Assembly: GCA_031255415.1 (NCBI GenBank)
Contig: JAIRSO010000066.1
Location: 24,163-88,162, forward strand
Source of the DNA: Oscillospiraceae bacterium
GTDB lineage: Bacteria; Bacillota; Clostridia; Christensenellales; Aristaeellaceae
DNA length: 64,000 nt
Reading direction: 5' to 3'
Below the pieces are notes generated by a model that was not told the DNA's origin, made no database searches, and saw nothing but the letters and a program-made list of their open reading frames with translations. Each line of letters starts with the position of its first letter. Within the stretch, counting starts at the first letter, position 1. Shown here piece after piece: positions 1 through 57,356 of the stretch. Both the position numbers and the translations under genes were made by a program.

Positions 1-600
1 ATCGTAGCCGAACTGCAGGAGTTGAGTTATTTCGACTTAGCTCTGCCCAGGAAGGGCGTGCTGGCTGGGAACCGCGTGCGCAAGCTCTGCGGGCAGGTGG
101 TGCGGAATCTGGCGTTTGAGGAAGCGTCCAAGCCATGCGCGGTGGTGGCGTGCGCGCTGGATACGGGCGAGGAAGTGGTGTTTAAGAATGGATCGATGGA
201 GGACGCGATAAGGGCGAGTATATCGATCCCGGGGGTGTTCGTGCCGCACGAGATCAACGGGAGGCTGTATGTGGACGGGGGGTTGGTGAACAGGGTGCCC
301 GTGACCACCGCGCGCGAGATGGGCGCGAAGCTGGTGATAGGCGTGGACGTAGGGTATCGGGGGGAACCGGTACAGCCGAAGGGTGTGATAGGGGTGATGA
401 TGCAGGCGTTTGACATAATGGAGTGGCATCTAGCGCGGATGAAATTCTCGACCGCCGATCTGATGATCATCCCGGACGTGCGGGAGTTGAATCCCGTGCA
501 CATGAATCACGCGGCGAAGGCTATCGCCAGGGGGAGGGAGGCCGCGAGGGAGGCGCTGCCGCGTATCCGCGAAATGCTGGGCGAAAACGTCGGAAATTGA
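1..600 (+). CDS. Patatin-like phospholipase, C-terminal part (truncated at window edge)
   Basis: Frame is open to base 1; [29 protein letters not shown] resembles the patatin DGG motif region. Confidence 0.8.
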
Positions 601-671
601 CGCGCGCCTTCCCAATCATTCGCGGCTGTGATATACTTTCCTCATTCAATAATATCGCAAGGAGGACTCCA

Positions 672-2486
672 ATGGCCACTGCGTCAGCGTTTACAATTAA
701 TCCGCCGAGCGACAGGATGGCGGGCGGACTGCCCAAGATAGGTATCAGGCCGGTCATAGACGGTCGCCGTAGAGGCGTGCGCGAATCCCTAGAGAATCAA
801 ACCATGAGTCTGGCGAGGTTGGTAGCGTCGTTTATCAGCGAGAATTTGAAGCACAGTTGCGGTTTGCCGGTAGAATGCGTTGTAGCGGATACGTGCATAG
901 GCGGGGTGTACGAGGCCGCGAAGTGCGCCGAGAAGTTTGACGCGAACAATGTAGGCGCGACAATAAGCGTAACGCCGTGCTGGTGCTATGGATCAGAAAC
1001 AATGGATATGGATCCATCAAGGCCGAAGGCGGTTTTCGGGTTTAACGGAACGGAGAGGCCAGGCGCGGTGTATTTAGCCGCCGCGTTAGCCGCCCATAAC
1101 CAGAAGGGGTTGCCCGCTTTCGGGATCTATGGAAGGGATGTGCAGGACGCGTCAGACGTAAGGCTAGCAAGCGATGTGCAGGAGAAGCTGCTAAGGTTCA
1201 GCCGGGCAGCGCTAGCGGTAGCGTCAATGCGGGGAAAGAGTTATTTATCGATGGGTGGAACGTCCATGGGGATAGCGGGCAGTATGGTCAATCCAGGGTT
1301 GCTAGAGAAAACGTTTGGAATGAGAAGCGAATCGGTAGATATGTCGGAGTTCGTGAGAAGATGGGATGAAGGGATATACGATAAAGAAGAGTATCAGCGG
1401 GCTGTCAAGTGGGTTGATGAGAATGTGAAGTTCGGGTTTGATAAGAATCCGCCAGAGGTAAGGCACAGCGAGAATGTAAAGAGAGACGCGCTGCTCACCA
1501 ATATAAAGATGACGATAATAGCGCGCGATCTGATGATAGGAAATAAAAGGCTGGCAGAGTTAGGGTTCGAAGAAGAAGCCATGGGGCATAACGCGATAGC
1601 GGGCGGGTTTCAAGGTCAAAGGCAATGGAACGATCATTTCCCGAACGGGGACTTTTTGGAAAGCTGGTTGTGCTCGTCGTTCGACTGGAATGGGATAAGG
1701 GAGCCGTTTGTAGTAGCGACAGAAAATGATCATTTGAACGGGTTAGCAATGCTGATGGGGAAGCTGCTAACTAACACGTCGCAAGGGTTCGCGGATGTAA
1801 GGACGTATTGGTCGCCGGACGCGATAAGGAGGGTGACAGGTTGGACCCCGGACGGGGTGGTTGCAGGCGGGATGATACATCTGATTAACTCCGGGGCAGT
1901 GACGTTGGAGGCGTCAGGGCAATGCGAGATAGAAGGAAAGCCAGGGATTAAGCCATGGTGGAAAGTAACGCCGGATGAAGCCGCAAGATGCGTGAACGCC
2001 ACGCAGTATGATTACGCGGATTTAGGGTATTTCAGGGGTGGTGGGTATTCGTCACAGTTGTTAAGCAAAGGCGGGATGCCTATTACAATGAGCAGGTTGA
2101 ATCTAGTGGATGGGTTAGGGCCAGTATTGCAAGTGGCTGAAGGATGGAGTGTGGATGTGCCCGATCATGTATTCGATGTGATCAATAAGAGGACCGATCC
2201 GACATGGCCGACGACGTTCTTCGTGCCAAGGGTGACAGGGAAGGGTGCGTTCAGGGATGTGTACGCAGTGATGGAGAACTGGGGCGCGAATCACGGCGCG
2301 TTCAGTTATGGGCATGTGGGCGCGGATTTAGTGACGTTGGCGTCGATGTTAAGGATTCCGGTTAACATGCATAATGTGTCTGAAGAGATGTTGTACAGGC
2401 CGTCGGCATGGGCGGCGTTCGGGACGAGGGATCCAGAGGGCGCGGACTACAGAGCGTGCGAGGCGTTCGGGCCGCTGTACGGCTGA
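672..2486 (+). CDS. fucI: L-fucose isomerase
   Basis: ATG at 672 after AGGAGG; protein resembles FucI throughout ([66 protein letters not shown]). Confidence 0.95.
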
Positions 2487-2601: not shown

Positions 2602-2625
2602 TCACAGCGGCACATGGGTCCAGCG
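2602..2625 (+). repeat. 24-nt dispersed repeat, copy A: TCACAGCGGCACATGGGTCCAGCG
   Basis: Exact match to the reverse complement of 53155-53178; lies between fucI and the next ORF at a GC-skew flip. Confidence 0.95.
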
Positions 2626-2646: not shown

Positions 2647-3609
2647 ATGCCGATCAACAACTTCCTTCGACATGGCAACACTCTTGTCGAGGCGCTCTCT
2701 GACGACTCCAACTTTGTTGACGACGTCCCTTACACCGACGAATCCTCCGAATCCTTCTCCGTCACCGAACCTGCTGGCGACGCTTCCGATGTTCAGCGCA
2801 TTATCCAGCAGAAGCTCAGCGGCATCGAGATAACCAGCCCTGTTGGCACCCCAATCTCTCCGGACGTTACCAACGACTTCGAGATCAAATCTGTTGCTGG
2901 CGACTCCGGGCTCCCCTTCTTCGCGGAGTTCCGGCTCCAGGGCGAGAGCGACGTTCAGATGACCACTAAAAAGCGCAACCAGCGCACCCGTATCGATCTT
3001 ACTCTTTCTACCGATTCTGACGGCATACTTCGCGCCACACTCCCCCCTGGCTCTTTTGCGATCACCCAGCAGTCCACCCAACCTGGGTACCTCCTTAACG
3101 CCTTGCATCATGATCTCCAGGTCGGCACATCGGGCTACGTCATTGACGGCGTATATTTTGATGAAACCCCTGGCATTATTACACCAAAACTATCGCAGCC
3201 TTTCAAGATCCGCATCCTCACCCCTGACGATACCCCTTCTCTTTCAACCTACATCGTAGCCGGTTACGCCAATACATATCTGGGCGAGACCGACGTTGAG
3301 CTAACCATATCCCCTGACGCGGACGGCTATGCTTCTTTCGATCTCCCGGTCGGACACTATTCGCTTATCAATCCCCTATCTGCCGACACTATCCTCCTTG
3401 ACCTTGACGTACAACCCACCTCCCCTAACGCAACCACTCTCCTTGAATACACGATCACGGAAACCCCCGCTCCCCCTCCCACCCAATACCCTACCACTCC
3501 CGCCACCCCCGACGAAGTATCCTCTCCCGGCGACTTGCTCGAATTATACACCCCCTTAAGCTCATTACAACCTCCCCCCACCCCTGCTCCGCAGCCGCCG
3601 AAACTCTAA
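2647..3609 (+). CDS. Hypothetical protein with prealbumin-like beta-sandwich repeats and Pro/Thr-rich C-terminus
   Basis: ATG at 2647 preceded by AGGAGG; two segments of the type DGILRATLPPGSFAI / DGYASFDLPVGHYSL; unusual pyrimidine-rich codon usage. Confidence 0.7.
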   Translation: MPINNFLRHGNTLVEALSDDSNFVDDVPYTDESSESFSVTEPAGDASDVQRIIQQKLSGIEITSPVGTPISPDVTNDFEIKSVAGDSGLPFFAEFRLQGESDVQMTTKKRNQRTRIDLTLSTDSDGILRATLPPGSFAITQQSTQPGYLLNALHHDLQVGTSGYVIDGVYFDETPGIITPKLSQPFKIRILTPDDTPSLSTYIVAGYANTYLGETDVELTISPDADGYASFDLPVGHYSLINPLSADTILLDLDVQPTSPNATTLLEYTITETPAPPPTQYPTTPATPDEVSSPGDLLELYTPLSSLQPPPTPAPQPPKL

Positions 3610-31700: not shown

Positions 31701-31755
31701 ATAGATTGGGTTCCCTTCGCTTCGCACGGTATCTTCCCCTGGGAACGCCCCCTCT

Positions 31756-31892
31756 GTCGCTTTGCGACATCTCCCCCTAGGGGGGCGACAAGGGGTGGTA
31801 CCTTCCTACGCGTCGCCTTCTCATGTTGGCGGAACGCACGGAGGGTACCACCCCTTGTCGCCTCCTTAGGGGGAGATGCCGCGAAGCGGCGG
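31756..31892. repeat. Large imperfect inverted repeat (possible MITE-like dispersed element)
   Basis: Left arm GCGACATCTCCCCCTAGGGGGGCGACAAGGGGTGGTACC pairs with right arm GGTACCACCCCTTGTCGCCTCCTTAGGGGGAGATGCCGC; ~43-bp arms with few mismatches, short loop. Confidence 0.85.
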
Positions 31893-31916
31893 ATCACGCC
31901 TACCCTCGCGAGCGTC

Positions 31917-50017: not shown

Positions 50018-50877
50018 GCGTACCTGTATGGGAAGCATTCTATCAGTTGTTCCTGCTTTAGGTTTACGTCGCCGCCGTCGATCCGGTATGATGATACTAT
50101 CTCGTCGGGAGTGGGCAGGGGATCGTCGTCCAAGTTGAGCGGCTTTATGTCCAGACCGAACGAGCCGTAGTAATCGAGGAATTTATTATCCCACCATTTC
50201 TGTCTGGTGTTGGTGACGCACCAGCGGTTGGGGATCCCGAACGCGTCCGCGAACACCGCGCCGTGCAGGCTGGTGGTGACGACGGTCTCGCAGCGGCGCA
50301 ATTGATCAAGGAATCGGCGGGGATCCATCTGTATATCCAGAACCATCGAGTGCGGATGCCGCTCCTCGAACTCCTCAAAGAATGGCAGATCCTTCTCCTG
50401 ATAGTGCGGGATAACGCCTAAGCGCACATCCTTATGAACGCGGGGCAGTCCCGGCAGTCTGGAGGCCAGCAGTCCGGGATCGGCCAGCGGGCAGTCTATC
50501 GTTTGCCCGGACGTGGCTTCAAGCCGCGCTTTAGTGAGCGGGCCGCGCAGCGCGAGCACGTCCAGAGGCCTAATCAGCGGCATGATGTAAGGCTCGTCGC
50601 GCAGGTATCCCGCTCCCCATACATACAGGGGATCGTCGCGGATCGCGGCGTGTTTGCGCGAAGCCGCGAAATGATCCAGTATGCTGCCTATCGCGACTAT
50701 ATCCGCTTGACCCTGCGTGCCCCACAGCGCTTTAACGTTAAACAACAAGTTCATCATCCATGGCGCGAACATGTCGCCAGCGTTCTGGTATCTGTAGAAG
50801 TATAGTTTGACCGTTTTCTGAAGAACGCGCGGTCCGCGCGCGGTCGATTCCATGTATGGTATCGCGGTCATAGGCAC
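50011..50877 (-). CDS. Polysaccharide pyruvyl transferase family protein
   Basis: NAGDMFAPWMMNLLF; TTSLHGAVFADAFGIP. Confidence 0.85.
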   Translation of the reverse strand: MPMTAIPYMESTARGPRVLQKTVKLYFYRYQNAGDMFAPWMMNLLFNVKALWGTQGQADIVAIGSILDHFAASRKHAAIRDDPLYVWGAGYLRDEPYIMPLIRPLDVLALRGPLTKARLEATSGQTIDCPLADPGLLASRLPGLPRVHKDVRLGVIPHYQEKDLPFFEEFEERHPHSMVLDIQMDPRRFLDQLRRCETVVTTSLHGAVFADAFGIPNRWCVTNTRQKWWDNKFLDYYGSFGLDIKPLNLDDDPLPTPDEIVSSYRIDGGDVNLKQEQLIECFPYRYAY

Positions 50878-50931
50878 ACCCTCCCGTCCATTACTTGTCT
50901 GGACAGGATATGCGCCGACTCGAGCGCGATA

Positions 50932-51675
50932 TTACAACCGGGTCAAAGCGCAAGCAGCCTCGCTACGGTTGGAACGCAGTTGGCGGATTCCAACGATTGC
51001 GTAAGATTGTTCCAGAGCGGCGCGGGCTGTTTTGATTATGCCAGGCCAAGAGGGCGTCGCGTTCGAGGGCAGTTTCAGCGTCATCAATGCCCATCCGGAT
51101 TGAGTCAATAGCGGCGCGCAGTCCAGCATAACCCTGCAGGAACGCGCCGCGTCCATCTTCATGTCGTTGACAAGAAGCGACGCGCGGCTGATGGGAGCGG
51201 TTTGAAGGTACTGTCCGGCGGTAGTGCGGATGTGGGTGACGGAAGGGTTGTCAGCCGCGAGCGGATGCAGAGCGCCAGGATCGACTGCAGTGACGAGTAT
51301 CCCAAGAGAGGCCAGCACGTATGACCAGCCTCCAGGCGCGGCTCCAAGGTCGACGGCGAGGGATCCGGGCGCGATAGGTATGCCGAACAGGTCGATGGCT
51401 TCTAAAAGTTTCATCTCCGAGCGGCAGATAGTGAATGGGTAACGCGAGGGTCGTTCAATGGGGAGGGAATCGCCGCGTATGGGTTGGACGTCGCGAGCAA
51501 ATACGGGCGGGTTGGACGACAGTATCCGCGTAAAGTCGTCAAACCCGCCGTCCCATTCGATTATACGGGAGATAGGCGAGATGGGATCGCCCGCGCGCAG
51601 TCCGGCAAAGCGCGAGGTTAGTTCGCGCATAGCAAGGCGTTCAGCCTCGCGATGGAAGAACGCAAGAGCTTTCAA
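50932..51675 (-). CDS. SAM-dependent methyltransferase (RlmM/FtsJ-like)
   Basis: GSLAVDLGAAPGGWSYVLASLGILVTAVDPG. Confidence 0.82.
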   Translation of the reverse strand: MKALAFFHREAERLAMRELTSRFAGLRAGDPISPISRIIEWDGGFDDFTRILSSNPPVFARDVQPIRGDSLPIERPSRYPFTICRSEMKLLEAIDLFGIPIAPGSLAVDLGAAPGGWSYVLASLGILVTAVDPGALHPLAADNPSVTHIRTTAGQYLQTAPISRASLLVNDMKMDAARSCRVMLDCAPLLTQSGWALMTLKLPSNATPSWPGIIKTARAALEQSYAIVGIRQLRSNRSEAACALTRL

Positions 51676-51680
51676 GAGTG

Positions 51681-53075
51681 TTAAAACTCAGCGGAGCCAG
51701 TGGTGCGGGGGAAGGGGATAACGTCGCGTATGTTAGACATGCCCGTAAGGAACATGATCAGTCTGTCAAATCCTAATCCGAATCCAGCGTGGGGCACGCT
51801 GCCATATGCGCGCAGGTCGAGATACCAACGATAAGGTTCAAGCGGCATGTTGAGTTCCAGCATGCGAGAGGTTAAGGCGTCCATGCGTTCCTCCCGCTGG
51901 CTGCCGCCAACCAGTTCGCCAATGCCCGGAGCAAGGAGGTCAGCCGCCGCGACAGTCTTGCCGTCGTCGTTCATGCGCATATAGAACGCTTTGATCTCCT
52001 TAGGGTAGTCATGGACAAAGACAGGGCGTTTGAAGTATGTTTCAGCGAGGTATTTCTCGTGTTCGGTTTGGAGGTCGCTGCCCCAGGAGACAGGGTATTC
52101 GAATGACAGCGGGGCTTTTTGGAGGATGGAGATTGCGTCCGTATAGGTGATACGAGCGAAGTTGGACGTAGCGACGTTTTCAAGGCGGTCAAGGAGGGTT
52201 TTGTCGAACATTTGGTTGAGGAAGCGAAGGTCAGGAAGGGATTCGGTAAGGATAGAGGTGACGATGTCCTTAGTGAAGGATTCCGCGAGATCCATGTCGG
52301 CATGGAGGTCAGCAAAAGCAATTTCAGGTTCGATCATCCAGAATTCAGCGGCATGGCGAGGCGTGTAGCTACGCTCGGCACGGAAGGTAGGGCCGAATGT
52401 GTAACAGTCGCGAAGCGCAAGACAGAATGCCTCGACGTTAAGCTGGCCAGAGACGGTAAGGAAAGCGGCGCGGCTGAAGAAGTCTTGAGAGAGGTCGGCA
52501 AGGCCGGAAGGGGTAAGAGGAGGGGTGTGTGGGTCAAGGGCAGTAACGCGGAACATCTCGCCCGCGCCTTCAGCGTCAGAGGTGGTAATAATAGGGGTGT
52601 GGACATAGATAAAGCCAAGGTCATGAAAGAATTTGTGGACGCGCTGCGCGGCAAGCGAGCGGATACGGAAGACCGCGCCGAATGTGTTGCTGCGAGGACG
52701 CAAGTGAGAGATGGAACGGAGGAATTCAAGAGAGTGGCCTTTCTTCTGGAGTGGGTAATCGGATGAGGAAGGGCCTGAAAGGGTGATGGAGGTTGCCTGC
52801 ATCTCGAAAGGTTGCTTGCGGTCAGGGGTGGGGATGATGGAGCCAAGGCAAGTGAAAGCAGCGCCGACGTTTTGCTTGGCGATATCCTTGTAGTTAGGGA
52901 TAGCGTCAGAAGCAGCGACGATCTGCAAAGGCTGCTGGTGCGTGCCGTCGGATAAGGCGATAAAGGCGAAAGCACGGGAGTCGCGGATAGAGCGCGCCCA
53001 GCCGGATACGGATACGTCAAGGAGCGGCTCGACGGGAGGCGCCGCGTAAAGTTCGCGCACGGTTAGTTTAGTCAT
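51681..53075 (-). CDS. asnS: Asparaginyl-tRNA synthetase
   Basis: MTKLTVRELY start after AGGAGG; FFSRAAFLTVSGQLNVEAFCLALRDCYTFGPTFRAERSYTPRHAAEFWMIEPEIAF. Confidence 0.96.
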   Translation of the reverse strand: MTKLTVRELYAAPPVEPLLDVSVSGWARSIRDSRAFAFIALSDGTHQQPLQIVAASDAIPNYKDIAKQNVGAAFTCLGSIIPTPDRKQPFEMQATSITLSGPSSSDYPLQKKGHSLEFLRSISHLRPRSNTFGAVFRIRSLAAQRVHKFFHDLGFIYVHTPIITTSDAEGAGEMFRVTALDPHTPPLTPSGLADLSQDFFSRAAFLTVSGQLNVEAFCLALRDCYTFGPTFRAERSYTPRHAAEFWMIEPEIAFADLHADMDLAESFTKDIVTSILTESLPDLRFLNQMFDKTLLDRLENVATSNFARITYTDAISILQKAPLSFEYPVSWGSDLQTEHEKYLAETYFKRPVFVHDYPKEIKAFYMRMNDDGKTVAAADLLAPGIGELVGGSQREERMDALTSRMLELNMPLEPYRWYLDLRAYGSVPHAGFGLGFDRLIMFLTGMSNIRDVIPFPRTTGSAEF

Positions 53076-53142
53076 AACATCCTCCTGGAATATAGCATTG
53101 ACAAGTGATGATCCTGGAGAGTCAACGAGCCGGGGCAAGGAA

Positions 53143-53163
53143 GGTCCAGCGGCACGCTGGACC
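53143..53163. other. Perfect 9-bp inverted repeat (3-nt loop) fused to 24-mer copy B
   Basis: GGTCCAGCG-gca-CGCTGGACC. Confidence 0.85.
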
Positions 53164-53178
53164 CATGTGCCGCTGTGA
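53155..53178 (-). repeat. 24-nt dispersed repeat, copy B
   Basis: + strand CGCTGGACCCATGTGCCGCTGTGA is the exact reverse complement of 2602-2625. Confidence 0.95.
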
Positions 53179-53186
53179 TGTTTTTG

Positions 53187-54473
<1,287 letters not shown>

Positions 54474-54476
54474 CTA

Positions 54477-54950
54477 TTATAATATTAACGCGGCTGCCGC
54501 TATGCCTAGCGCCGCCCCGGCCAATACCTCTACCGGCGTGTGACCGATCCATTCTATCAGCGTCTCTTGCTTAATCGGCGTGCCTTTCTCTATAAGGTTC
54601 TCTAGATCGGTCAGCAGCTGATTGATAACCTTCGCATGCCTTCCCGCCTGCCTCCTCACTCCTGACGCGTCATACATAACGATCAACGCTAACGCGCACG
54701 CCAGCGCGAATATCGGCTCCCCGAAACCTTCTTGCAAACCTACTCCCATCGCAAGCGCCGCGGCCATCGCGGCATGCGAGGACGGCATCCCCCCGGACTG
54801 AATGATCTTGCGGATATTCAAACGCTTCTCCGTAATCAACACTACCACTACCTTGGCGATCTGCGCGACGACCCACGCTAACAGCGCGACTCCTAGCACG
54901 CGGTTCTCGAAGATATGGCTCAAATGGGTGATGCGGGACAATTGCTTCAC
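54477..54950 (-). CDS. Divergent PAP2 family protein (DUF212-like)
   Basis: QSGGMPSSHAAMAAALAMGVG; DASGVRRQAGRHAKVIN; GHTPVEVLAGAALG. Confidence 0.9.
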   Translation of the reverse strand: MKQLSRITHLSHIFENRVLGVALLAWVVAQIAKVVVVLITEKRLNIRKIIQSGGMPSSHAAMAAALAMGVGLQEGFGEPIFALACALALIVMYDASGVRRQAGRHAKVINQLLTDLENLIEKGTPIKQETLIEWIGHTPVEVLAGAALGIAAAALIL

Positions 54951-54962
54951 TCCTTTACGCGG

Positions 54963-55847
54963 TCAGGCGAATTCCCTCATCATCTCCACGAACTGCGCCA
55001 GCGGCGCGCCTCGTCCTCCCAGCTTCCATAGGGCCGCAAGCGCGGCGCGTTCCCATTCTTCCGCTTTGCGTTTCGACTCGTTGATCCCGTATACTACAGG
55101 CCATGTTATCTGCCCCTTATCCGTATCCGCATCCTGCAGATCGTCTCGCAGTTGGTACAGCATGCCCAGTTTCAGACCGAATGATACGGCGGCTTCGATC
55201 TCGCTTTCCGACGCTCCCGCCAGCCTGAACCCGGCCTCCGCTGCGGCGCGGAACATCTCCGCCGTCTTCCTCCGATCTATATCCTCCAACAACGCCGCCC
55301 GATCCTCAATCCCGCCGTCCTTCCATCTAACCGACCCTGTTCCTACCATATCCAGATACTGCCCTACGGCTATACCGCGCATTCCCGCCGCGGTCAATAC
55401 CGCGCGCGCCGCGTCCACCCGGCGTTTCATTCGTTCGAATACCATGGCTTCGCTTGCTTTAACGATCATCCGCTCCGCCGCGATTGCTAGCAGCGCGTCC
55501 CCGGACAGCACCGCCATACCCTCCCCATACGCCTTATGATGAGCGGGCTTGCCCCTTCTTGTATCCGCGTCGTCCATCGAGGGCAGATCGTCGTGTATTA
55601 ATGAAAACGCGTGTATACACTCCAGCGCGGCGGCATAACGCAACGCCTCGCCATCTTCCCCATCGCCGCCCATCGTTTCATACGCGGCTAACAACAGCCC
55701 GCCCCGCAGACGCTTCCCGCCTCCTAGCAGCCCATAACCCAGCATCCGCGAGAATTCTTCATACTCCGGCGCTTCCGGCTCGCAGAACCCCGATAGCTCG
55801 CGTTCTATATCCTTTGCCCACGCCGCTAACCGTTCCTTCATACTCAT
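54963..55847 (-). CDS. ispA: Polyprenyl (farnesyl) diphosphate synthase
   Basis: GGKRLRG; FSLIHDDLPSMDDADTRRGKPAHH; YQLRDDLQDADTDKGQITWP. Confidence 0.95.
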   Translation of the reverse strand: MSMKERLAAWAKDIERELSGFCEPEAPEYEEFSRMLGYGLLGGGKRLRGGLLLAAYETMGGDGEDGEALRYAAALECIHAFSLIHDDLPSMDDADTRRGKPAHHKAYGEGMAVLSGDALLAIAAERMIVKASEAMVFERMKRRVDAARAVLTAAGMRGIAVGQYLDMVGTGSVRWKDGGIEDRAALLEDIDRRKTAEMFRAAAEAGFRLAGASESEIEAAVSFGLKLGMLYQLRDDLQDADTDKGQITWPVVYGINESKRKAEEWERAALAALWKLGGRGAPLAQFVEMMREFA

Positions 55848-56062
55848 ATATCATTCCCGTCCGTCCCGCCACGCTCGTCCACGCTCAGCGTGACCAACCG
55901 CTTCTCGGTCTGGTTTAATTGCTCGTCTAGAGCGCGGGCTAGGTTCATCCCGTCGGCGTATGTGCTCATCGCTTCCTCTAGCGTCAACTGCCTCGTCTCC
56001 ATGCGCTTGACCAGCGATTCCAATCGTTCCAATCCAGCTTCGAAAGTCGTGTCATCCGGCAC
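55844..56062 (-). CDS. xseB: Exodeoxyribonuclease VII small subunit
   Basis: FEAGLERLESLVKRMETRQLTLEEAMSTYADGMNLA. Confidence 0.93.
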   Translation of the reverse strand: MPDDTTFEAGLERLESLVKRMETRQLTLEEAMSTYADGMNLARALDEQLNQTEKRLVTLSVDERGGTDGNDI

Positions 56063-57356
56063 GCGTCCCGCTCCCTTCGTCCAGATCCACGCCGTCGGCG
56101 CTCGACCTTACCGCGCCGCCGCGCATGCGTATCATCAGCGTCATACCCGGTTCGACTTGATCCGCGCCGTTCAGCCACCGTCCATGTTCGTCCGACACCA
56201 TCGCGTAACCGCGTTCCAATACGTTCGACGGATTCAGCGTAGCCAGCCGCGCCTCAAGAGCGGTTAGCGCCGCGCGCCTTTGCGGTACGACCCGATCCGC
56301 GCACGCGAGTAACCTTTCGCGCAGTTCGACGATACGCTTGCGCCTCTCGTCAAGCGCGCGGCGAGGCTCGACGGCGTTCAGCCGCGCGGTTAGATTCGAC
56401 AGCCGCTCCCGCGACTGCTTCAGCCGCCTGTCCGCCGCGATCGACATCCTGGCGCGATACTGCCCGATCTGATCCGACAGCGCGGCACGAGAAGGCACTG
56501 CCAGCTCCGCCGCCGCCGATGGAGTCGGCGCGCGAACGTCCGCCGCGAAATCTGTCAGCGTGGTATCCGTCTCATGCCCGACCGCGCTTACTACAGGCGT
56601 ATTACAATCCGCGACGGCGCGCACGACAATCTCCTCGTTGAACGCCCATAGATCCTCGAGCGAACCGCCGCCGCGCCCGGTGATTATCACGTCGATAAAC
56701 GGCAGGCGATCCAGCGCGCGTATCCCGCGCGCGATCTCTTCAGCCGCGCCAGCACCCTGCACGCGCGCCGGAGCGAGATACAACGGCACGCCGGGATGCC
56801 TTCGCGCCGCGACGGTCTGTATATCGCGCACGACCGCGCCCGTCGGCGACGTGACAATTCCCACGCCTTTAGGCAGTAACGGCAGAGGCTTCTTGCGCGC
56901 CGCGTCGAACAGCCCCTCCGCCAGCAATCGCCTTCGCGTTTCTTCGTAACGCAGGAACAGCGCGCCTACGCCGTCTGCGCGCATCGATTCGACATAAAAC
57001 TGATACGCGCCGTCGCGGGCGAATAACGCGGCGCGACCCTCCGCCACGACCCGCAGACCATCCTCCGGAACGATTGCGCACATCTGCGCCTGCCCCCGGA
57101 ACATCACGCATTGTATCCGCGCGGACTCGTCCTTTAACGAAAAGTAGAGATGCCCGCTGCTATGGCGCTTTAGATTGCTGATCTCGCCGCGAAGAGCCAG
57201 CCCCTGCAGCATCGGATCCGCCGCCAGCGTCCGCTGGACGTAGGCGTTCAGTTCCGATACGGTAAGGACGCGGCCAGCGCGTGGCGCGTGCTCGTCCGGA
57301 GCGTCCGCCGCGCCCACTCGCGCCAGTTGCTCCAGCCGATCTATAAGGTTAAGCAC
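56052..57356 (-). CDS. xseA: Exodeoxyribonuclease VII large subunit
   Basis: LTVSELNAYVQRTLAADPMLQGLALRGEISNLKRHSSGHLYFSLKDE; GIVTSPTGAVVRDI; GRGGGSLEDLWAFNEE. Confidence 0.96.
   Translation of the reverse strand: MLNLIDRLEQLARVGAADAPDEHAPRAGRVLTVSELNAYVQRTLAADPMLQGLALRGEISNLKRHSSGHLYFSLKDESARIQCVMFRGQAQMCAIVPEDGLRVVAEGRAALFARDGAYQFYVESMRADGVGALFLRYEETRRRLLAEGLFDAARKKPLPLLPKGVGIVTSPTGAVVRDIQTVAARRHPGVPLYLAPARVQGAGAAEEIARGIRALDRLPFIDVIITGRGGGSLEDLWAFNEEIVVRAVADCNTPVVSAVGHETDTTLTDFAADVRAPTPSAAAELAVPSRAALSDQIGQYRARMSIAADRRLKQSRERLSNLTARLNAVEPRRALDERRKRIVELRERLLACADRVVPQRRAALTALEARLATLNPSNVLERGYAMVSDEHGRWLNGADQVEPGMTLMIRMRGGAVRSSADGVDLDEGSGTRAG

What the first reader, a model, noticed from the sequence alone, without database searches (positions are those of the whole stretch)
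53143..53178. Second 24-mer copy with an attached perfect 9-bp hairpin, again at a skew flip
Between obgE and asnS the 24-mer appears inverted and abuts GGTCCAGCG-gca-CGCTGGACC, so half the repeat forms a tight hairpin. In the repeat's own orientation the layout matches copy A: upstream gene (obgE) reads toward it, downstream gene (asnS) reads away. + strand counts: 52501-52560 G28/C9, 52681-52740 G23/C8, then 53221-53280 G15/C22, 53461-53520 G8/C24, 53641-53700 G4/C30. asnS on the minus strand therefore has a C-rich coding strand, opposite to the other minus-strand genes in the window.
Basis: partly seen in the sequence, partly recalled or inferred. Interest (0 to 1): 0.85.

Follow-up and report, generated by a model that had tools for sequence, protein, structure and literature searches.

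The report
Mutation-scarred flanks of repeated DNA palindromes
The 24-letter repeat is the edge of a long hairpin-forming element present at dozens of places in this bacterium, and each copy sits at the centre of about 3 kb of strand-lopsided mutation, which looks like an evolutionary scar of repeated DNA breakage and error-prone repair at palindromes in a lineage where the hairpin-cutting nuclease SbcCD was not found.

Summary
The 24-mer at 53155-53178(-) and 2602-2625(+) is the outer edge of a repeated element with 31 core copies in this 2.15-Mb draft genome. Complete copies are long interrupted palindromes (87 bp of perfect stem in one, DNA folding z = -19.5). Most copies break the assembly. 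A and B are shortened copies, and B's "9-bp hairpin" looks like a collapsed palindrome.

Around the copies, composition on the strand pointing at the element shifts over about 3 kb. At 4-fold sites C falls from 0.42 to 0.08, A rises from 0.08 to 0.30, G from 0.38 to 0.54, T does not rise. The other side mirrors this, whichever way genes read. All 31 5' flanks and 10 of 11 3' flanks follow it. A second species of the genus shows the same signature around different insertions; there obgE-asnS lacks both element and skew. Both species lack detectable sbcC and sbcD. Two congeners with sbcCD carry diverged units, mostly tandem or single, with weak or no skew.

Best reading: recurrent palindrome-provoked breakage with strand-asymmetric, transversion-rich repair, as shown at palindromes in yeast. 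Footprint: strongly supported. Mechanism: inferred. No function is shown.

The parts
53155..53178 (-). 24-mer, outer edge of the element, copy B
   Evidence: exact match; one of 31 core copies in the genome
53143..53163 (.). 9-bp perfect hairpin with 3-nt loop, read as a collapsed inverted partner copy (deletion between direct CCAGCG repeats inside the full palindrome)
   Evidence: compare full palindromes and the intermediate form on C49
53179..53190 (-). remainder of the outer arm of copy B, abutting the obgE stop codon
   Evidence: alignment by eye with other copies (gacaaaacatcag type)
2602..2625 (+). 24-mer, copy A; the element is truncated just after it
53187..54461 (-). obgE, scarred flank (coding strand points at the element; C-poor, A- and G-rich silent sites)
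51681..53075 (-). asnS, scarred flank (coding strand leads away from the element; G-poor, T- and C-rich silent sites)
50700..53142 (.). approximate extent of the skewed flank left of copy B
53190..56200 (.). approximate extent of the skewed flank right of copy B
423..2486 (+). open frame 5' of copy A, looks like an L-fucose isomerase (by eye); scarred flank
2647..3609 (+). open frame 3' of copy A, unknown protein; scarred flank (third-position GC skew -0.52)

Best explanation
The repeat is the edge of a REPIN-like extragenic element: two inverted copies of a three-hairpin unit that together form a long palindrome. Such palindromes extrude hairpins or cruciforms and provoke recurrent DNA breaks (or an equivalent two-sided single-strand exposure). 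Repair re-synthesises up to about 3 kb on each side with strand-asymmetric errors: on the strand whose 3' end points at the element, C is replaced by G and A (G.C to C.G and G.C to T.A transversions), with some G to A. Over evolutionary time this saturates silent sites and gives the skew flip. Palindromes of this size are tolerated because this lineage appears to have lost SbcCD, the nuclease that cleaves such hairpins. Copies such as A and B are deletion remnants that keep the scar. Shown: the element, its copy number, the palindromic form of complete copies, the two-sided footprint, its dependence on the element between species, and no detectable sbcC/sbcD in either affected species. Inferred: breakage, the repair pathway and polymerase, which strand is damaged, and the causal role of SbcCD loss.
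For: Footprint in 31/31 5' flanks (sign test 9e-10) and 10/11 3' flanks; 4-fold-site gradient independent of gene direction; same footprint around different insertions in G001; no element and no skew at obgE-asnS in G001; polarised changes at the locus are mostly G.C transversions; 87-bp perfect stem, z -19.5; sbcC and sbcD found in G002/G003 but not in G000/G001, with the syntenic place occupied by another gene; a second palindrome family with shorter arms gives a weaker, shorter footprint in the same direction; yeast palindromes cause two-sided mutagenesis with G.C to T.A and G.C to C.G transversions (PMC3681665); human break hotspots show strand-asymmetric mutation within 2 kb (PMC7615360).
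Against: No break has been observed. Without SbcCD it is unclear what cuts the hairpins, and in yeast the mutagenesis needs hairpin opening by the SbcCD-related complex with Sae2 (PMC3681665). Most copies are cut off by contig ends, so the palindromic form is seen completely in few. The SbcCD correlation rests on four draft genomes and perhaps one loss; G002 also has at least one convergent pair, and many sbcD-negative family members have no such units. C80 has no 3' footprint.
Confidence: 0.65

Rival explanations
1. Strand-displacement model: the elements are nicked (for instance by an HUH/RAYT-type transposase) and synthesis runs outward from both sides, displacing the outward strand. That strand, exposed as single-stranded DNA, suffers guanine oxidation (G to T, G to C) and cytosine deamination (C to T).
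For: On the outward strand of asnS the changes are G to C (20), G to T (18) and C to T (15), as expected for damage of an exposed outward strand. REP-type elements have associated tyrosine transposases (PMC3116915).
Against: No transposase was sought or found; a weaker footprint at an unrelated palindrome family argues for structure rather than one specific site.
Confidence: 0.15
2. Transcription effect: the elements are bidirectional terminators and the skew reflects purine-rich transcripts, or R-loops, ending at them from both sides.
For: 25 of 31 copies lie a median 59 bp behind a gene reading toward them.
Against: Genes reading away from the element, or antisense to the predicted transcript, shift just as the others do (asnS; genes on the minus strand 5' of copies). 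G001 has the same gene order without the shift.
Confidence: 0.05
3. Fork-stalling model without breaks: hairpins stall replication, and gaps behind the fork are filled by an error-prone polymerase.
For: Hairpins of this stability plausibly block polymerases; the sequencing reads themselves fail there (poly-G/poly-C junk).
Against: A fork meets a given locus from one side, yet single loci are about equally scarred on both sides (A, B, C49, C86).
Confidence: 0.1
4. Insertion or selection bias: the element inserts where the skew already flips, or purine-rich Chi-like motifs pointing at the site are selected.
For: AGCGG (known to me as the Chi of Bacillus subtilis) is 4 times denser on the inward than on the outward strand near copies.
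Against: The change is wholesale base replacement at silent sites; no 8-letter word stands out, and the empty G001 site shows no flip.
Confidence: 0.05

Closest known systems
REPINs / BIMEs (inverted doublets of repetitive extragenic palindromes; PMC3116915)
   Same: Short extragenic repeats in many copies, arranged as inverted doublets that form a hairpin; species-specific amplification
   Different: Unit is larger (three hairpins, about 76 nt plus an outer arm) and complete copies have a near-continuous stem of about 90 bp or more; no transposase was tested; flanking mutation scars are not part of that description
Fragile-motif mutagenesis at inverted repeats in yeast (Saini et al. 2013, PMC3681665)
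   Same: Palindrome at the centre, mutations on both sides over kilobases, G.C to T.A and G.C to C.G transversions
   Different: Engineered yeast sites, Pol zeta and Sae2 dependence shown; here a natural bacterium, evolutionary time, polymerase and break inferred
Strand-asymmetric mutation at human meiotic break hotspots (Hinch et al. 2023, PMC7615360)
   Same: Mirror-image strand asymmetry within about 2 kb of a recurrent break site, including C>G and C>A
   Different: Programmed breaks by SPO11; all substitution classes rise there
246-bp interrupted palindrome in the E. coli chromosome (Darmon et al. 2010, PMC3315005)
   Same: Palindrome of similar size whose fate depends on SbcCD
   Different: Single engineered site; outcome without SbcCD and RecA is hairpin-capped ends and inverted duplication, no flanking skew described in the abstract and outline read

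Membership tests
REPIN / REP-BIME | many extragenic copies of a short palindromic unit | tested here: met
   31 core copies and 43-44 inner units in own genome, 157 in G001
REPIN / REP-BIME | doublets organised as inverted repeats forming a hairpin | tested here: met
   complete copies on C33 and C36, convergent pairs in G001; not true of most sampled G002/G003 units
REPIN / REP-BIME | associated RAYT (REP-associated tyrosine transposase) | not tested
   no search for Y1_Tnp was made in these genomes
REPIN / REP-BIME | GTAG/CGTC-type tag at one end of each REP | not tested
   no systematic comparison with tagged REP families
Known structured RNA (Rfam) | match above a family's gathering score | tested here: not met
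   only sub-threshold chance hairpin matches
Palindrome-induced fragile site | long inverted repeat able to form a hairpin | tested here: met
   87-bp continuous stem, z -19.5
Palindrome-induced fragile site | mutations on both sides over kilobases | tested here: met
   (as accumulated composition, not as a measured rate)
Palindrome-induced fragile site | physical breaks at the site | not testable with these tools
   needs END-seq or RecA ChIP-seq

The most novel reading that the evidence does not exclude
Loss of SbcCD let long palindromes multiply in this lineage, and each became a chronic break site that rewrites the silent sites of neighbouring genes with a fixed strand polarity; local skew flips would then be a readable genome-wide map of recurrent breakage and repair range in uncultured bacteria.
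Probability: 0.45. Interest if true: 0.85.

Novelty: new variant of a known kind. Interest (0 to 1): 0.78.

Why it matters
Palindrome fragility is known mainly from engineered reporters. Here a natural bacterial genome carries dozens of replicates with a quantified, strand-resolved footprint, plus natural controls (empty sites, sbcCD-positive congeners). If right, composition becomes a record of where chromosomes break and how far repair reaches, and nuclease loss is linked to repeat expansion. It also shows that essential genes such as obgE and asnS can be strongly recoded at silent sites by a neighbouring repeat, and explains why such assemblies break at these places.

Tried and rejected
Rfam scan: only chance hairpin matches. 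The 20-mer core in GTDB genomes: one real relative (G001) and one chance coding match in a Betaproteobacterium; none in viral contigs. Coding or terminator skew: rejected by the gene-orientation test. Chi enrichment: no specific long word. G028 gave weak model matches in divergent pairs with no skew, judged a different thing. The idea that contig ends mark physical DNA ends was dropped: repeat structure and poly-G/poly-C junk explain them as assembly and sequencing failure. My first reading that only outward-strand damage could explain the spectrum was withdrawn after reading the break-hotspot paper.

Full report
Observation. The 24-mer TCACAGCGGCACATGGGTCCAGCG occurs at 2602-2625(+) and 53155-53178(-); the perfect 9-bp hairpin is at 53143-53163 and the quoted base counts are exact. 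A chance 24-mer pair is not expected (about 1e-5). Scanning the window with paired 1.5-kb windows, the two strongest G-to-C flips are at 53191 and 2551 (z 4.3 and 4.2). The next, less than half as strong, lies about 0.2 kb from the longest local inverted repeat of the window, at 31753-31893. (An early notebook entry gives the 24-mer positions a few bases off; one search is the correct one.)

The element. The genome (2.15 Mb, 104 contigs) has 31 copies of the core AGCGGCACATGGGTCCAGCG, one of them with a mismatch. Most continue into a three-hairpin unit: CCAGCGGCACGCTGG, GGGGGGCTGAAGCCCCCC, CTGGGGCAGCGCCCCAG, then C-rich repeats. Twenty copies lie within about 415 bp of a contig end, always with the 3' side at the end, and several ends run into poly-G/poly-C junk. 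Complete copies that were assembled through are two units facing each other, such as C33:58030-58335 and C36:12188-12675, the latter with junk in its centre. The C33 copy folds with 87 bp of uninterrupted stem, -171 kcal/mol against -77 +/- 5 for shuffles. Copies A and B are shortened: A stops just after the 24-mer and a few more bases; B and C72 share a fused hairpin that would result from deletion between direct CCAGCG repeats inside the palindrome; C49 has an intermediate palindrome. This may be why the 88-kb contig assembled through A and B; that the collapse is real rather than an assembly artefact is not proven. 25 of 31 copies sit a median 59 bp behind the stop codon of a gene reading toward them.

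The footprint. In the element's orientation the 5' flank (-1500 to -50) has positive GC skew in 31 of 31 copies (mean 0.31; background 0.00, s.d. 0.11), and the 3' flank is negative in 10 of 11. At 4-fold degenerate sites the top-strand composition goes from A .08 C .42 G .38 T .13 at -5 to -4 kb to A .30 C .08 G .54 T .08 at -500 to -250, with the mirror image on the other side. Averaged over genes reading in and out, skew is 0.56 at 0.5-1 kb and gone by 3 kb. Genes on either strand shift the same way, so coding direction is not the cause. The exception on the 3' side, C80, is a half element whose 5' flank is scarred and whose 3' flank is not, as expected after a rearrangement (inference). 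On the inward strand C is most depleted after T (0.16 of baseline, against 0.34-0.39 after G or C); codon usage may contribute to that difference.

Natural controls. G001 (same genus; its contig with the core matches JAISWI01, MAG Oscillospiraceae bacterium Nc350_bin118, by length and position) has obgE and asnS 48 bp apart with no element. Its asnS is A .05 C .45 G .47 T .03 at 4-fold sites, ours A .07 C .48 G .11 T .34. Polarised with two same-genus relatives, our asnS kept 10 of 53 ancestral G (20 to C, 18 to T, 5 to A) but 41 of 61 ancestral C; obgE kept 8 of 19 C (9 to G, 2 to A) and 40 of 70 G (19 to A, 7 to T, 4 to C). Syntenic genes beyond about 3 kb show no comparable shift. G001 itself carries 157 copies of the inner unit at other places, often in convergent pairs, and 24 sampled copies show the same footprint at lower amplitude (0.31 at 0.5-1 kb).

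SbcCD. Full-length sbcC and sbcD are adjacent in G003 and (sbcC cut by the contig end) in G002, and undetected in our genome and G001. In G002 and G003 they follow an ABC-transporter ATPase gene; in our genome and G001 that gene (86-88% identical) is followed in contiguous sequence by an AraC-type gene instead. G002 and G003 hold many diverged units which in the sampled loci are mostly tandem or single, with skew about 0.2-0.27 confined to 500 bp in G002 and absent in G003, from small samples; one convergent pair was seen in G002 (C97). G018, also sbcD-positive, has mostly tandem units and skew of 0.1-0.2 within 1 kb. sbcD is missing from a sizeable minority of the family, most of which have no such units, so loss alone does not predict palindromes.

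A second palindrome. The 31753-31893 inverted repeat belongs to another family (18 arm matches in our genome, 175 in G002). Eight sites show the same direction of skew, 0.30 within 500 bp and 0.15 at 0.5-1 kb, without A enrichment. This points to palindromy rather than to one sequence, but the arm-length trend rests on two families.

Mechanism. [quoted passage not shown]). Human meiotic break hotspots show strand-asymmetric substitutions within 2 kb, ascribed to single-stranded DNA damage and translesion fill-in (PMC7615360). Both precedents match in range, two-sidedness and main mutation classes. In E. coli a 246-bp interrupted palindrome without SbcCD and RecA yields inverted duplications through a hairpin intermediate (PMC3315005). 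I therefore favour recurrent breakage with error-prone repair. Composition cannot say whether the damaged strand is the 3'-ended inward strand (C lesions bypassed with a pyrimidine inserted) or the outward strand (G oxidation plus C deamination). What cuts the hairpins without SbcCD is open.

Limits. Draft metagenome assembly, 88% complete; no reads, no long reads, no experiment; the two affected species may reflect one event; polarised substitutions come from one locus; no RAYT or polymerase search was made. Literature searches in the held library found no report of such a footprint in bacteria; the library lacks most subscription journals, so this is weak evidence of novelty.

Noticed in passing
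window 31753-31893; own contigs C13, C24, C28, C29, C33, C49, C88: A second palindromic repeat family (54-bp arms, GACATCTCCCCCTAGGGGGGCGACA); abundant in G002 (175 matches), 18 in own genome, 4 in G001; weak flanking skew in the same direction.
   Followed up: partly
G000:C80:11998 (L073): Half element with scarred 5' flank and unscarred 3' flank, suggesting a recent rearrangement at the element.
   Followed up: partly
L051-L076, -1200 to -50: On the inward strand, C at silent sites is most depleted when preceded by T; a possible context preference of the mutagen.
   Followed up: no
G028 (L249-L258): Divergent pairs of weak model matches about 0.6-1.3 kb apart in an sbcD-negative family member, with no skew around them; nature unknown.
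   Followed up: partly
window 2647-3609: The protein after copy A has a proline- and threonine-rich C-terminal tail in the zone of strong C enrichment; its composition may partly be a product of the mutational bias.
   Followed up: no
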